From assembly GCA_020052615.1 (NCBI GenBank), contig JAGVOT010000039.1, forward strand, positions 1-35,345: a stretch of 35,345 bases of DNA. The letters are read 5' to 3'. The notes beneath the pieces were generated by a model that worked only from the letters and a program-made list of their open reading frames with translations, had not been told where the DNA came from and did no database searches. This stretch comes from Nitrospirota bacterium (GTDB lineage Bacteria; Nitrospirota; UBA9217). Positions 1,324 to 23,582 of this stretch are shown one piece after another; the stretch's first letter is position 1, and each line of letters opens with the position of its first letter. The position numbers were made by a program, and so were the translations under genes.

Positions 1324-1860
1324 ATGAAAATATCCGTGTTCATAGCGACCAGCCTCGACGGCTTTATCGCCCGCCTGAACGGCGACATCGACTGGCTCCT
1401 GAATGCCGGAGACACCAATGATCCCGAGGACTACGGGTACTCAAAATTCATAGCGACCGTGGACTGCCTCGTGATGGGCAGAAATTCCTTTGAAAAGGTC
1501 CAGTCGTTCCCCGAATGGCCCTATGCAGGGATGCGGGTCGTGGTGCTCAGCCGCACGCTGAACACAATACCCGACCAGGCCGTGGGAAAGGCGGAACTTT
1601 CAGCCGGCCCTGTCGAAATGCTGGCAGCAAAGCTAAGAGCCGAAGGGCTCGGTCGGATTTACATCGACGGGGGCAAAACCGTTCAGTCCTTCCTGAGGGC
1701 GGGGCTCGTTACCGATATGACGATCACACGCATACCAATTCTGATCGGCAGCGGGCTGCCCCTGTTCGGCGAACTCCCCGGGGACATCGCTCTTGACCAC
1801 ATCGAGACAAAGGCCTTTCCGTCCGGATTCGTCCAATCCCGCTACGAAGTGAGGAAGTGA
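1324..1860 (+). CDS. Dihydrofolate reductase / RibD C-terminal family reductase
   Basis: A 178-residue protein covering the whole DHFR-like RibD_C fold (PF01872). Family marks are the N-terminal 'MKISVFIATSLDGFIA', the 'DWLLN' turn, 'VMGRNSFE', 'VVVLSRTL' and the C-terminal 'IYIDGGKTVQSFL..GLVTDMTITRIPILIGSGLPLFG'. Members are NAD(P)H-dependent reductases related to both folate and riboflavin-pathway enzymes; single-domain YyaP/DfrA-like proteins such as this often have unknown substrates. The ATG start at the conserved N-terminus is clear. The gene is separated from its upstream neighbour by a dispersed repeat, so it is probably transcribed alone. It is the last high-GC gene before the low-GC island. 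Confident in the family, not in the substrate. Confidence 0.88.
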   Translation: MKISVFIATSLDGFIARLNGDIDWLLNAGDTNDPEDYGYSKFIATVDCLVMGRNSFEKVQSFPEWPYAGMRVVVLSRTLNTIPDQAVGKAELSAGPVEMLAAKLRAEGLGRIYIDGGKTVQSFLRAGLVTDMTITRIPILIGSGLPLFGELPGDIALDHIETKAFPSGFVQSRYEVRK

Positions 1861-2006: not shown

Positions 2007-2046
2007 CGTTTTCACAAAGAAAGAGTCCCAGGCATCATTCTTGCTA

Positions 2047-2132
2047 AACTGGTAAAGAAAGAAAATCCGTGCTTTACTATGGGTCTGGTTTTTAGGTGTT
2101 TACTATCCCCCATAGTCAACTACTAGTTGATT
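2047..2132 (+). other. Possible left cassette boundary / attC-like fold
   Basis: AACTGGTA (2047-2054) can pair with TACTAGTT (2121-2128) with one G-T wobble, and inside it ACTATGGG (2076-2083) pairs perfectly with CCCATAGT (2109-2116). The right arm ends in GTTGATT (2126-2132), like the GTTRAT-type boxes at other island boundaries. The first island gene starts 24 bases later. The left spacer is much longer than the right, which is unusual for attC, so the call is weak. Confidence 0.3.
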
Positions 2133-4410: not shown

Positions 4411-4469
4411 GACCAACCTGGCGCTCGACAGCGACGCGCCAAAGTCGGCGCGTGACGCGCGGGTTCCCC
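4411..4469 (+). other. attC-like site closing the first low-GC island
   Basis: AAC at 4415-4417 and GTT at 4463-4465 frame an imperfect palindrome. Outer AACC pairs with GGTT and the inner ACGCGCC (4434-4440) with GGCGCGT (4447-4453). It is clearly similar to the site at 23499-23559: both share AACnnGGCGC, GCGACGCGCCA, GGCGCGTGAC and end GTTCCCC. High-GC, typical host sequence begins immediately after. Confidence 0.5.
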
Positions 4470-7425: not shown

Positions 7426-7553
7426 CATTAGTCGCAGAACACGGGTCGTCGGTCGGCGGTCAACGGTCGAAGTGCCGCATGCCGGGCGCAACTACTTCGG
7501 AAATCATATCATCCCTTCAAGAAGCATCACCTGCAAGGATAACAATACCTCTT

Positions 7554-17136: not shown

Positions 17137-17170
17137 AGGATGATGCGGATCATGGGGCATTGTGTATTTT

Positions 17171-17228
17171 GTAGGGGCGGCCCTGTGTGGCCGCCCCTTG
17201 AAGGGCAACCACGCAGGGTTGCCCCTAC
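17171..17228. repeat. Two-hairpin palindromic repeat
   Basis: The outer 8-bp ends GTAGGGGC (17171-17178) and GCCCCTAC (17221-17228) are perfect inverted repeats. Inside are two hairpins: GGGGCGGCC/GGCCGCCCC (17174-17182, 17189-17197) and GGGCAACC/GGTTGCCC (17203-17210, 17217-17224). It begins 1 bp after the nagZ stop. This is a cruciform-type dispersed repeat that may also act as an RNA stabiliser or terminator for nagZ. Confidence 0.7.
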
Positions 17229-17229
17229 C

Positions 17230-18789
17230 TCAGACGCTTCCTGCCAGCATCTCCGCAGCCGCCTCCTGGATCGCGTCCATGCGGTCGTAGCCGGCGATCA
17301 GAACGTCGGCGTCCTCGAACTGATCGAGGATATAGGGGCTGTCGAAGGATATGACGGCGGAGCGCTTTCCCGCGGCCTTTGCCCGCCGGAGGATGTCGAA
17401 GGCGGCATCGCGAAGCTTCGGGGAAATGCCTGAACGTCCCTTGGACGCCGATATCCGGGAGAATACGGCGATGACGACAGAGCCGACGCTGCTGAGATCC
17501 AGATGAGATGAAAGATCTGCGGAGCTTACGTCCGGCGTCAGCGTCGTTGTGGTCACTGTTCCGAAGCCTCCCATCAACGCACGGGAGAAGGTCGCACCCA
17601 TCCCCTGACCGTCATCATCGAGAACAAAGCACGCGACGCCCTTCTTTCTGTCGAGAGGAAGCTTCTTTTTATCCCCCCTGAGCAGGGAAACCGCTTTCCT
17701 GCCGAGCTCCCGTGCGATATTCCGGTGCTTTTCGTAGTCGATCTTCCGGGCCGGCTTCTGTTCCTTTTCGTATAGCCCGAGCTGCTTCTTCGCGGCCATG
17801 ATCCGGTCCCCCGACTCACGGATGCGCGTTTCCGTGAGCCGCCCCTGTTCCACGGCCTTTACCACGGCATCAATGGTGGCCCTGGCGTCGACGGGATGGA
17901 GCAGGATATCCATGCCCGCCTCGACGGCCCGGATCGCGATCTCGTCCTGGGGATACTCGCCCGTCAAAGCGCCCATGTCGAGGGCGTCCGAAACGATCAG
18001 CCCGCTGAACTCCATTCCCTCGCGCAGGAGCGCCGTCACGACCTTCTTCGAAAAGGTCACCGGCTTCACCGGGTCCAGCGCGGGGACCAGCAGATGGGCG
18101 ATCATCACCGTGCCCACGCCGTCCTTCACGGCCTCACGGAACGGCGGCAGCTCCACATGGTTGAGCCGTGCCCGATCGGCGCGAATGATCGGCAGGACCG
18201 AGTGAGAATCCTGGTCCGTGTCCCCGTGGCCCGGAAAATGCTTGGCGCAGGCAAGAAGGTCCCGGTGGCCGTCTGACCGCGGTTTCTGAAGACCGCGGAT
18301 GTAATGCCTTCCGAACCACTCCACCGTCTCGGGGTCCTCGCCGAATGACCGGGTGCAGATGATGGGATTGTCGGGATTGTTGTTCACATCCATGACCGGC
18401 GAGAAAACGATGTGAATGCCGGCCGCCCGGCTCTCCACGCGGACCGCGTCGAGCATCCGGTCGAGAAGGTCCAGGTCCTTCTTTGAGCGCCGTCCTATGG
18501 CCGATGCCACGGCCCGCTGGCTCGGGAAATGCGTCCCCCCCTCCAGCTGCTGGCCGAGTCCGCGCTCCACGTCGGAGGAGATCAAAAGGGGGAATTCCGC
18601 CCGGGACTGAAGTTCTGCAAGATAGCGGGGCGTGCTGTCGATATCGCCTCCAAAGAGGATGAACCCGCCGATGCCCTCCTCGGCGAGCGCAGCCATCGCA
18701 CTGCGATACGACGCGTCAGGAAGCTGCTTTCCCTCGATCCGCGGCATCACCATCTGCGCAACCGCTTGTTTCAACGATGGAATTTTCAT
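17230..18789 (-). CDS. nagZ: Glycoside hydrolase family 3 beta-N-acetylhexosaminidase
   Basis: A 519-residue GH3 enzyme. The start ATG (MKIPSLKQAVAQMVMPRIEG) has AGAGAG upstream. The catalytic (beta/alpha)8 domain spans about residues 1-340: 'FPLLISSDVERGLGQQLEGGTHFPSQ', 'HFPGHGDTDQDSH' (the NagZ His/Asp dyad loop), and 'GLIVSDALDMGAL' with the Asp nucleophile. It then continues into a GH3 C-terminal domain (GRKAVSLLRGDKKKLPLD). This makes it longer than the single-domain NagZ of E. coli and more like two-domain versions. It cleaves GlcNAc from muropeptides in cell-wall recycling. No signal peptide is seen, so probably cytoplasmic. Confidence 0.88.
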   Translation of the reverse strand: MKIPSLKQAVAQMVMPRIEGKQLPDASYRSAMAALAEEGIGGFILFGGDIDSTPRYLAELQSRAEFPLLISSDVERGLGQQLEGGTHFPSQRAVASAIGRRSKKDLDLLDRMLDAVRVESRAAGIHIVFSPVMDVNNNPDNPIICTRSFGEDPETVEWFGRHYIRGLQKPRSDGHRDLLACAKHFPGHGDTDQDSHSVLPIIRADRARLNHVELPPFREAVKDGVGTVMIAHLLVPALDPVKPVTFSKKVVTALLREGMEFSGLIVSDALDMGALTGEYPQDEIAIRAVEAGMDILLHPVDARATIDAVVKAVEQGRLTETRIRESGDRIMAAKKQLGLYEKEQKPARKIDYEKHRNIARELGRKAVSLLRGDKKKLPLDRKKGVACFVLDDDGQGMGATFSRALMGGFGTVTTTTLTPDVSSADLSSHLDLSSVGSVVIAVFSRISASKGRSGISPKLRDAAFDILRRAKAAGKRSAVISFDSPYILDQFEDADVLIAGYDRMDAIQEAAAEMLAGSV

Positions 18790-20409: not shown

Positions 20410-20429
20410 CACTGCCCCTTTCAGCCTTC

Positions 20430-20510
20430 TTTGCGAGCGAAGCGATCTCGCAGTTCGACGAGCCACAAGTTCGAGATTGCCGCGTCGCATATAGCCCTCC
20501 TCGCAATGAC
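20430..20510 (+). repeat. Dispersed palindromic repeat, copy II
   Basis: It starts CTTTGCGAGCGAAGCGATCTCG and ends CCTCCTCGCAATGAC, with GAGATTGCCGCGTCGC in the middle. It matches copies at 1194-1279 and 35253-35339. It lies just after the EAL gene, in the spacer before plsC, where no other gene is seen. Confidence 0.75.
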
Positions 20511-20619
20511 ATAGCCGGGATCTTCAGCCTGACAACCTGATCCTCCTCTTTACCTTCACCCCCGCCGATGCTATACTGTGACCGTCTAGCGCACCGATCT
20601 CACGACCAAGGAGTTCCCG

Positions 20620-21937: not shown

Positions 21938-22046
21938 CAGCATGGACTAAGCGTGCACAGGACCTGCTTCCTGAAGTAGATGTTTGTATATAAATGTAGA
22001 TGCAGGCTTCCGTCCCATCAATAACTGGTTAACCCCGAGAAAAGAT

Positions 22047-22523
22047 ATGGCAAAAGAAACATTTATCGCAAGCACTTCTCCCTTCAAAATATTTAGCGCG
22101 TTATTTGCGCTGTGCGCCATCCTATTGTTGCTGAAGTATTATGTCGGATGGTTTGTCTATCCGCTCGCATTCATCTGTATTGGTCTGGCATACCTTCTCT
22201 GGAAAATATCCCCACCGATAATCGAAATAGATGAATATGGAATAAGAAGACTTCAACACGGTAGCTCATTGGCCGGAGCTATGTCGCGGCTTCTGCTACC
22301 CGATATCGGGTGCGAATGGGTTTGGGTAAACTCGATTACAACGACACGGCTCAATGCCGGATCCTTTGTAACTTCGATCTCGGTTTCTGACGAAATGCCA
22401 AACAAACCGAAATATCGAGTGACAATTGAATCATCAATTTACAAGAATTACGTTGCCATCCTGAAAGCGATAAAAGCCAAAGCAGTGAAAGCCAACTTCG
22501 ATGAAACGACCGAATCGATATAA
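22047..22523 (+). CDS. Small membrane protein, possible PH-like domain, in second low-GC island
   Basis: A 158-residue protein. The ATG at 22047 follows GAGAAAAG and lies 19 bases after GTTAACC (22028-22034), a candidate cassette start. A TTG at 21984 would add 21 codons before the boundary and is less likely. Two hydrophobic helices come first (FKIFSALFALCAILLLLKYY and WFVYPLAFICIGLAYLLW). A cytoplasmic domain starting 'PPIIEIDEYGIRRL' with 'CEWVWVNSITTTRL' follows, like bacterial PH-like domains where an aromatic patch precedes an I-T strand. GC and codon use are much lower than in the upstream fabZ-like gene. Function unknown. Confidence 0.7.
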   Translation: MAKETFIASTSPFKIFSALFALCAILLLLKYYVGWFVYPLAFICIGLAYLLWKISPPIIEIDEYGIRRLQHGSSLAGAMSRLLLPDIGCEWVWVNSITTTRLNAGSFVTSISVSDEMPNKPKYRVTIESSIYKNYVAILKAIKAKAVKANFDETTESI

Positions 22524-22531
22524 AAGGTGAC

Positions 22532-22622
22532 GTTGATATTCGTCCTGTCAGACTTTATTATTTATGGCTTTTTGTATTCACCGTCATCGCAGCACTTTTA
22601 CATACATATTTCAGAAAAGGCT
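22532..22622 (+). other. Gene remnant or very small membrane peptide between cassette-type borders
   Basis: GTTGATA (22532-22538), a match to other boundary boxes, starts a stretch of about 90 bases open in one frame: VDIRPVRLYYLWLFVFTVIA, then ALLHTYFRKG and stop. It reads as the C-terminal transmembrane helix of a protein but has no good start codon. It could be a truncated cassette whose 5' part was lost, or a gene-less cassette. Confidence 0.25.
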
Positions 22623-22676
22623 AACCAGCGCGTCGAGTGAGTCGCGAAAGCCTCGCTCCTCACGCGCGCGTTGATA
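22619..22676 (+). other. attC-like recombination site
   Basis: AAC (22623-22625) and GTT (22670-22672) enclose GCGCG/CGCGC and inner GTGAG/CTCAC stems separated by unpaired spacers, the layout of an attC. The right box reads GTTGATA. The next ATG (22682) lies 10 bases after the box, the usual tight spacing of a gene cassette. Confidence 0.5.
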
Positions 22677-22681
22677 GCGAT

Positions 22682-22924
22682 ATGCCAGAGAAACATTACA
22701 TAACCTCGATCATTTCAGCCCCGGTCGGCTTGGCCCTATTGATATGGCGGAAGCGTTTTGCCGCTGCTGTCGTCAGAGGGCAAAATAGAATCTGGGGTTT
22801 TCATTTGGGTCAGCGGGAAGAGAAGATCAGCCTTTTCATGGCAGTCCTCACTGGCATCGGTTTCCTGACAATCGGCATCCTTGGCCTCATTGGTTTCATC
22901 CATTGGAAACCAGGCACTTTCTGA
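22682..22924 (+). CDS. Small membrane protein in cassette-like unit
   Basis: An 80-residue protein (MPEKHYITSIISAPVG...). Two hydrophobic segments: ITSIISAPVGLALLIW and, at the C-terminus, LFMAVLTGIGFLTIGILGLIGFIHW, separated by a basic loop (RKRFAAAVVRGQNRIWGF) expected to be cytoplasmic. The frame stays open into the upstream attC-like site (from GTG 22637), but the ATG just downstream of the site is preferred. No family recognised. Low GC, compact flanks. Confidence 0.6.
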   Translation: MPEKHYITSIISAPVGLALLIWRKRFAAAVVRGQNRIWGFHLGQREEKISLFMAVLTGIGFLTIGILGLIGFIHWKPGTF

Positions 22925-22973
22925 TGAAGAATAGCTACTATCTCAAAAAATAGTAGACCTGCCCCTGTTAATA
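22904..22973 (+). other. Possible attC-like site
   Basis: AAC (22908-22910) and GTT (22967-22969) can pair, with AGG/CCT next to them and an inner 7-bp stem CTACTAT (22935-22941) / ATAGTAG (22950-22956). The right end reads GTTAATA, like the other boundary boxes. The stop codon of the preceding gene lies inside it. Spacers are long, so weaker than the other sites. Confidence 0.3.
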
Positions 22974-23005
22974 ATGATAAAATATTTTCAGTGGAGGATA
23001 TAATC

Positions 23006-23209
23006 ATGGGAAGTAAAGTTGAAGCATTGGAAAACGAGATTAAGGACCTTTCTCGCGATGAGCTGGCTTCTTTCCGGAATTGGTTCGTGAAATTCGACGC
23101 CGCCGAATGGGACGGTCAGATCGAAAATGATATTAAAGCCGGAAAGCTCGATCAGTTAGCAGCAAAAGCACTCGCCGCGCACAAACGTAGGAAGAGCCGG
23201 GAACTTTGA
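23006..23209 (+). CDS. Antitoxin of a RelE/ParE-type toxin-antitoxin pair
   Basis: A 67-residue acidic-to-basic helical protein. ATG at 23006 has a perfect GGAGG 8 bases upstream (22993-22997); a GTG at 22991 overlaps that site and is rejected. The sequence (KVEALENEIKDLSRDELASFRNWFVKFDAAEWD, then AGKLDQLAAKALAAHKRRKS) matches small antitoxins found directly before RelE/ParE-like toxins. The C-terminal half would wrap the toxin. Its stop overlaps the toxin's TTG start (TTGA), so translation is coupled. Located in the second low-GC island, between attC-like sites. Confidence 0.8.
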   Translation: MGSKVEALENEIKDLSRDELASFRNWFVKFDAAEWDGQIENDIKAGKLDQLAAKALAAHKRRKSREL

Positions 23210-23460
23210 AACATTATGCCTCACCGGATTTCTGGACATGCTTTGAAGTTCTCCCCGATCCTGTCAAAGAGCTTGCACGCAAAAGCTACGAACTTTTGAA
23301 AGAAAATCCTCATCATCCTTCTCTCCATTTAAAACAAGTCAAAACTTACAGGTCAGTTCGTATCGGCCTTCATTACCGTGCTCTGGGCGTCAACGTCGAA
23401 GATGGCATTCTCTGGTTTTGGATCGGCACGCACACGGATTATGATAAGCTGCTTCGTTAA
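23206..23460 (+). CDS. RelE/ParE-family toxin
   Basis: An 84-residue protein starting with TTG in a TTGA overlap with the antitoxin. It has the compact RelE/ParE fold: 'SPDFWTCFEVLPDPVKELARKSYELLKENPHHPSLHLKQVKTY', then 'SVRIGLHYRALGVNVEDGILWFWIGTHTDYDKLL'. The G-x-HYRALG and W-I-GTH-x-YD strands are typical of the subgroup paired with this antitoxin. Expected to be an mRNA interferase or gyrase poison; which cannot be told here. It ends about 40 bases before an attC-like site. Toxin-antitoxin pairs are common stabilisers of cassette arrays. Confidence 0.85.
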   Translation: MKHYASPDFWTCFEVLPDPVKELARKSYELLKENPHHPSLHLKQVKTYRSVRIGLHYRALGVNVEDGILWFWIGTHTDYDKLLR

Positions 23461-23498
23461 GTGTTATTGGCCTTGCTCGTAATAAAGCAAAAAGAGAA

Positions 23499-23559
23499 TT
23501 TCAACAAGGCGCGTCCACGGCGACGCGCCAGAAGGCGGCGCGTGACCGCCGCGTTCCCC
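23499..23559 (+). other. attC-like site closing the second low-GC island
   Basis: AAC (23503-23505) to GTT (23553-23555), with GGCG arms outside and GCGCC/GGCGC-type arms inside. It is a near copy of the site at 4411-4469 and also ends GTTCCCC. Sequence beyond it is again host-like, with the terminator of the next minus-strand gene. Confidence 0.5.
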
Positions 23560-23582
23560 CTCATAAGCCAACCGGAATAAAA

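What the first reader, a model, noticed from the sequence alone, without database searches (positions are those of the whole stretch)
22028..23555. Low-GC island 2: second cassette-like array with a toxin-antitoxin pair
From GTTAACC at 22028 to GTTCCCC at 23553 the sequence is low in GC, all on one strand, and holds two small membrane proteins, a gene remnant and a RelE/ParE-type pair. AAC...GTT palindromes or GTTGATA/GTTAATA boxes lie at 22532, 22619-22676, 22904-22973 and 23499-23559. Small membrane proteins and TA pairs are frequent cassette cargo. Two arrays 18 kb apart in one window would be unusual.
Basis: partly seen in the sequence, partly recalled or inferred. Interest (0 to 1): 0.72.

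Follow-up and report, generated by a model that had tools for sequence, protein, structure and literature searches.

The report
Integron cassette array without its integrase
This 1.5-kb stretch is a pair of integron gene cassettes parked at a site with its own docking sequence but no integrase gene, one of about twenty such parking places scattered over this bacterium's genome, where related species hold different cargo at the same spots.

Summary
The stretch is low in G+C (46% against 58%) and holds two cassettes cut at G|TT: 22029-22670 (a membrane-type protein with an early stop) and 22671-23553 (an 80-aa protein and a ParE-like toxin with its partner). Cassette 1 recurs in another genus behind a different attC, homology beginning exactly at 22028. 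The left edge ends in an attI-like sequence (iterons plus ...ACTGG|TT) also seen at other cassette loci of the family; such iterons lie beside an integrase gene in a Geobacter. No integrase is near. The genome has 36 attC at 21 loci, two of them next to an integrase gene. At orthologous loci of congeners the edges are conserved to within a few bases while the cassettes between are unrelated. Best reading: an integrase-less integron (a CALIN that kept attI), one of many dispersed docking sites served in trans. CALINs, CALINs at conserved loci and one attI-headed CALIN are in print; about 20 such loci per genome was not found in my searches. No empty site was found; no activity was tested.

The parts
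21976..22028 (+). attI-like docking site of island 2: iterons GTAGATG...TGTAGATGCAG (21976-22006), core CTTCCGTCCCATCAATAACTGG ending at the G of G|TT (22028)
   Evidence: Iteron pattern found in only 4 of 41 genomes, 5 places (G000, G002 twice, G003, G012); backward control pattern 0 of 41. Core matches G003:C27, G001:C32 and G001:C34 ends; 13-mer TCAATAACTGGTT also lies between IntI and cassettes at C101. Iterons of the same kind lie beside an IntI match in Geobacter sp. H2geo. Not detected by the type-A attI model R3.
22029..22670 (+). cassette 1, from G|TTAACC to G|TTGATA
   Evidence: Homology to G004:C26 starts exactly at 22028 (80% over 22028-22609), where an attC precedes it
22047..22523 (+). 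cassette 1 gene: 158-aa membrane-type protein, no family; stops 36 residues before its homologue in G004
22619..22676 (+). attC 1
   Evidence: R1 55.3 bits, R2 57.3 bits; leave-out E 3.2e-7; 88% to an attC at C74 beside IntI
22671..23553 (+). cassette 2, from G|TTGATA to G|TTCCCC
   Evidence: cut points from the attC R' boxes; 22940-23486 is 87% to G004:C143
22682..22924 (+). 80-aa small protein, no family
23006..23209 (+). 67-aa putative antitoxin
   Evidence: overlaps the toxin start; no family; pair conserved in G004
23206..23460 (+). 84-aa ParE-like toxin
   Evidence: PF24732 E 1e-7
23499..23559 (+). attC 2, last site; its R' box is G plus flanking TTCCCC
   Evidence: R1 66.9 bits; leave-out E 1.1e-14; about 85% to sites at C66 and C2
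20620..21453 (+). left flank: acyltransferase; downstream of it G001 has an attI, another cassette and an attC
   Evidence: PF01553
21491..21937 (+). left flank: FabZ-like dehydratase, not next to the acyltransferase in G001 or G002
   Evidence: PF07977
23577..24509 (-). right flank: terminator-like hairpin and outer-membrane beta-barrel gene; G001 homology begins at 23577
2029..2128 (+). island 1 attI-like site (type A)
   Evidence: profile 53 bits, R3 52 bits
3066..3117 (+). island 1 first attC
   Evidence: R2 36.9 bits
4411..4469 (+). island 1 last attC; right-flank homology with G001 begins at 4467

Best explanation
Island 2 is an integron that has no integrase gene of its own: an attI-like docking site (left edge, cut at 22028|22029), two gene cassettes and their attC sites. 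It is one of about 20 such loci dispersed over the chromosome of a Nitrospirota bacterium. An integrase made elsewhere in the genome (intact gene at contig C74, another match at C101) most likely inserts cassettes at the dispersed attI sites and removes them at attC, so that each fixed locus keeps its edges while its cargo turns over. Shown: attC hairpins, cassette edges at G|TT, attI-like left edge, absence of a local integrase, integrase genes elsewhere in the genome, unrelated cargo between conserved edges at orthologous integrase-less loci, the same cassettes at other loci of another genus. Inferred: that the integrase acts in trans, that the attI-like site is active, that the toxin-antitoxin pair stabilises the locus.
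For: attC: covariation on 77 sites, 92.3% of cells paired, 12 of 14 pairs with changes on both sides, covariation score 0.496 against 0.132 shuffled and at most 0.102 slid. Family-specific: 14 of 14 genomes of the family have R2 matches (1 to 35 each); of 27 genomes outside it 21 or so have none: by the table 20 have none and 7 have 1-3. Integrase: C74 442 aa, TIGR02249 371.5 bits, cut-off 265; C101 338.5 bits. 36 attC at 21 loci on 19 contigs, 10 loci at least 4 kb from both contig ends, 2 loci with intI within 5 kb. attI type A: 9 distinct places in this genome, 9 of 9 lying 0.4-4.2 kb upstream of an attC on the same strand; next to an intI gene in G001:C15 and G002:C81. Conserved edges, changed cargo: at C50/G001:C1 left homology (669 bp, 93%) ends at the attI G|TT and right homology (2.5 kb, 89%) starts in the attC; C110/G001:C78 and C36/G001:C57 alike. 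13 cargo comparisons at orthologous loci: 11 without any similarity, 2 with only 59-79 bp. No IntI trace by tblastn at those loci. Same cassettes elsewhere.
Against: No recombination or expression was measured. Island 2's attI is recognised from iterons and a core of about 22 bp shared with a few loci, not by model R3, which misses it. Of 20 further regions fetched around R3 hits, only 7 have an R2 attC downstream on the same strand, 13 do not (in some the contig ends soon after). The genomes of the family that were compared are draft assemblies. The FabZ gene and the contig breaks in G001 leave the right edge of island 2 without an orthologous comparison. G008 and G010 carry 24 and 20 attC matches but no IntI above cut-off, so in them the system may be idle.
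Confidence: 0.72

Rival explanations
1. Ordinary decay: island 2 is the frozen rest of a once complete integron; the integrase was deleted, and the differences between species date from before that deletion or come from homologous recombination with other strains across the flanks.
For: The C2 locus keeps only the last residues of IntI beside its attI, and G003:C66 shows the same remnant, so integrase deletion in place did happen. C53 has a broken intI. At the island-1 locus G005 has an integron with intI next to the same flanking gene.
Against: At orthologous loci lacking intI in both congeners (C36, C50, C110, C76b, C41, islands 1 and 2) the cargo still differs completely but for short repeats at C41, which needs turnover after the loss, or repeated parallel losses. 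Only 2 of the examined intI-less attI loci show a clear IntI remnant. The integrase-loss part is not in conflict with the best explanation; only the 'frozen' part is.
Confidence: 0.2
2. The cassettes were inserted by an integrase into ordinary chromosomal G|TT sites (attG-type insertion), not into an attI.
For: Insertion outside integrons at such sites is described (Loot et al. 2024, known to me from recall and its citation in PMC12901181). The island lies between chromosomal genes.
Against: The left edge carries attI-like iterons and core shared with other cassette loci and, for the iterons, with an integrase-bearing Geobacter integron. Positions are conserved between species, whereas attG insertions are reported to scatter (PMC12444791 passage).
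Confidence: 0.05
3. Assembly artefact: pieces of one large integron scattered over contigs of a draft genome.
For: 11 of 21 attC loci lie within 4 kb of a contig end; repeats like attC break assemblies, as noted in PMC9024848 (passages).
Against: 10 loci, island 2 among them, lie inside contigs with chromosomal genes on both sides, and many have the same neighbours in an independent genome, G001.
Confidence: 0.03

Closest known systems
[quoted passage not shown]
   Same: two attC sites, cassettes on one strand, no integrase nearby
   Different: an attI-like site heads the array; CALIN as defined there counts attC sites only
Xanthomonas CALINs at conserved loci away from ilvD, PMC12444791
   Same: integrase-less arrays at loci conserved between species; mobilisation in trans is stated as possible
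   Different: seven loci over the genus there; about 19 loci without intI within 5 kb in one genome here, attI-headed where that was found, with cargo swapped between congeners
CALIN with its own attI in Shewanella prophage M16-3, PMC9892861
   Different: one such array, in a prophage; here many, at chromosomal sites with conserved neighbours
attG insertions (Loot et al. 2024, recalled and cited in PMC12901181; not read)
   Same: cassettes outside the integron, cut at G|TT
   Different: here the left edge is attI-like
Sedentary chromosomal integron (Vibrio superintegron; recalled)
   Same: similar attC sites within one genome, mostly unknown cargo, toxin-antitoxin cassettes
   Different: one long array beside intI in Vibrio; many short arrays apart from intI here

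Membership tests
integron gene cassette array (CALIN) | at least two attC sites close together with a conserved hairpin | tested here: met
   22619-22676 and 23499-23559
integron gene cassette array (CALIN) | no integron integrase nearby | tested here: met
   no TIGR02249 or PF00589 hit listed on the whole 35-kb contig; no tblastn trace in the window at E 1
integron gene cassette array (CALIN) | cassette boundaries at G|TT, shown by the same cassette in another context | tested here: met
   cassette 1 in G004:C26 behind another attC, homology starting at 22028
complete integron | intI gene next to the array | tested here: not met
complete integron | attI site at the left end | tested here: inconclusive
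   attI-like by sequence and place; model R3 does not detect it; activity not testable
attG insertion | left edge is ordinary chromosomal sequence unlike attI or attC | tested here: not met
   attI-like sequence shared with other loci
type II toxin-antitoxin, ParE-like | toxin matches the family above its cut-off and has an overlapping upstream partner gene | tested here: met
   PF24732 32.3 bits, cut-off 24.4; partner 23006-23209
type II toxin-antitoxin, ParE-like | toxicity neutralised by the partner | not testable with these tools
   no experiment

The most novel reading that the evidence does not exclude
A distributed integron: in this Nitrospirota family the docking site attI itself has been multiplied over the chromosome (9 distinct type-A copies here, 13 in a congener, plus other types), each copy heading its own short, exchangeable cassette array at a fixed neighbourhood, with a few integrase genes serving all of them in trans. 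Non-orthologous copies share only the attI and up to about 90 bp, so attI may travel as a unit of its own.
Probability: 0.45. Interest if true: 0.8.

Novelty: new variant of a known kind. Interest (0 to 1): 0.6.

Why it matters
Integrons are described as one array beside one integrase. If attI-headed arrays sit at about twenty fixed chromosomal places and are refilled in trans, cassettes can be placed in many neighbourhoods at once, and integrase-less arrays are working parts, not ruins. It would also pose a testable question: how attI sites multiply.

Tried and rejected
Rfam at gathering score finds nothing in the window and ARAGORN no tRNA, so no tRNA-targeted island. PADLOC finds no defence family among seven cassette proteins. 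No solved structure resembles the toxin by sequence. The boxes at 22532 and 22904-22973 as attC: rejected, no model hit. An exact empty site for island 2: not found; G001 and G002 have other content there, G004 and G010 have other genes after the acyltransferase and are too diverged. A single fragmented integron: rejected for interior loci. A composite element with common right ends: only three loci share about 60-75 bp beyond the attC, the rest do not, so not general. Whether more than the attI is copied between non-orthologous loci: only up to about 90 bp left of it. Rows dropped before counts: alignments under 150 bp; opposite-strand palindromic R3 hits when counting distinct attI places (one search lists 10 for this genome, 9 distinct, that at C76 partial).

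Full report
What is there. The window is contig C54 of a draft genome, G000 (3.99 Mb, 135 contigs). Between a FabZ-like gene and an outer-membrane gene lies a low-G+C stretch, 45.9% against 58.3%, with four genes on the plus strand. Two attC sites lie in it, at 22619-22676 and 23499-23559. They were first noticed because pieces of the stretch match other places in the same genome: 22622-22672 matches contig C74, and the stretch around 23496-23562 matches eleven places. Sixteen such sites align and fold into one hairpin; 8 of 14 pairs have changes on both sides. With 77 sites the support is strong: 92.3% of cells paired, covariation 0.496 against 0.132 for shuffles and at most 0.102 for slid partners (the alignment was fitted to a model, which leans towards its structure).

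Cassette edges. The R' boxes place the cuts at 22028|22029, 22670|22671 and 23553|23554. An outside test agrees: in G004, of another genus, cassette 1 (80% identity over 22028-22609) lies right behind a different attC, and the homology starts at the G of G|TT. The toxin-antitoxin part (22940-23486) is 87% identical in G004:C143, at another place, where model R1 finds an attC about 0.9 kb before it and none after it; a fragment of the toxin at G004:C93 is followed about 20 bp later by an attC. Cassette 1's gene ends 36 residues earlier than its G004 homologue. The toxin is PF24732 ParE_like; three cyanobacterial plasmid records hold relatives at 38-58% identity.

The integrase and the other loci. 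C74 carries an integron: integrase (442 aa; TIGR02249 371.5 bits, cut-off 265), two cassettes with attC, then a long ORF that I take for mfd (recalled, no family search). C101 carries a second integrase match of 338.5 bits, its N-terminal extension in another frame. C53 has a broken integrase gene, and C34 a partial one at the contig end. Model R2 finds 36 attC in 21 loci on 19 contigs; 10 loci lie at least 4 kb from both contig ends; 2 have an integrase gene within 5 kb. In the family, 14 of 14 genomes have R2 matches at E 1e-4; outside it 20 of 27 have none and 7 have one to three (my count from its table).

attI-like left ends. Comparing left edges showed a recurring element of 80-100 bp ending in ...CACTGG|TT, after which the sequences diverge into the cassette. 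A profile finds it at eight own loci besides partial hits, and in relatives. In G001:C15 and G002:C81 it lies 0.1-0.4 kb upstream of an integrase gene that scores above the cut-off, pointing away from it: the place of attI. Genome-wide, model R3 gives 9 distinct places in G000, all 9 upstream of an attC on the same strand, 13 in G001, and none in 27 of 27 genomes outside the family. The co-location in G000 is partly built in, since most of those sites went into R3. In 20 further regions around R3 hits, 7 have an R2 attC downstream and 13 do not. Island 1 has this type at 2029-2128. Island 2 has another: iterons at 21976-22006 and the core TTCCGTCCCATCAATAACTGG|TT. The iteron pattern occurs at five places in 4 of 41 genomes, never in the backward control. 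attC sites downstream of it were found at G002:C412, G003:C27 and G012:C108, not at G002:C446. The core is nearly repeated at G003:C27, G001:C32 and G001:C34, and its last 13 bases lie between integrase and cassettes at C101. In Geobacter sp. H2geo the same kind of iterons lie between an integrase gene and a G|TT. I therefore call 21976-22028 attI-like, with less certainty than for type A.

Same places, other cargo. Many attC loci have the same neighbours in G001 or G002. Right-flank homology begins within 0-25 bases of the attC G|TT at C66, C50, C36, C76b, C41 and island 1. At C50/G001:C1, C110/G001:C78 and C36/G001:C57 both edges are conserved: left homology runs into the attI, right homology starts in or next to the attC. 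Between the edges the cargo is unrelated: 13 comparisons, 11 without any blastn or tblastx match at 1e-3, and two with 59-79-bp stretches (one is an attC, the other an unexplained repeat). Two of the 13 use short intervals at contig ends. For island 2, G001 has, after the same acyltransferase gene, a type-A attI, a DUF7079 gene and an attC. No integrase trace was found at these loci. At the island-1 site G001 has a BrnT/CopG-type pair with attC, and G005 an integron with an integrase gene.

How it most likely works. Integrase supplied in trans recombines incoming cassettes at each attI and removes them at attC; the locus keeps its edges. Loss of a local integrase is documented at C2 and G003:C66, where only its last residues remain beside attI. 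Turnover after that loss is the inference that separates this reading from plain decay.

What is known. CALINs are defined in PMC9024848 (passages seen), which mentions two CALINs in Nitrospira. Conserved CALIN loci and mobilisation in trans are in PMC12444791 (passages); an attI-headed CALIN in PMC9892861 (passages); archaeal CALINs in PMC9668308 (passages). attG insertion: cited in PMC12901181 (passages); the original is not held. My searches listed no report of many attI-headed, integrase-less loci in one genome; most subscription papers are not in that library.

Noticed in passing
L069:13361-13696 (G000:C101) and L177 (Geobacter sp. H2geo): A small protein (weak DUF5710 similarity at C101) is encoded between the integrase and the cassettes; the end of its gene overlaps the iterons of the attI, so the iterons may derive from or be read by it.
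   Followed up: partly
L010:8567-8665 (G000:C2) and L252 (G003:C66): The same C-terminal integrase remnant stands beside an attI in two genera: an old in-place deletion of intI.
   Followed up: partly
L064 (G004:C26): Beside the relative of cassette 1 lies what looks like an IS91-type transposase with a tyrosine recombinase (read from its ORFs, no family search), a possible carrier of integron pieces.
   Followed up: no
window 17169-17230 and 20419-20515: Short repeats with many copies (75-95% identity) in congeners, REP-like.
   Followed up: no
window 1324-1860: A RibD_C/dihydrofolate-reductase-like gene between the conserved left flank and the attI of island 1, not at this place in G001.
   Followed up: no
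L076:6860-6890 (G000:C76) against L208:8149-8225 (G001:C32): At this orthologous locus G000 lacks the second half of the attI, up to the cassette start.
   Followed up: partly
L077:8320-8403 and L212:5725-5788, 7426-7503: A repeat of 64-79 bp shared by cassette regions, not an R2 attC; unexplained.
   Followed up: no
G008 and G010: 24 and 20 attC matches but no integron integrase above the cut-off.
   Followed up: no
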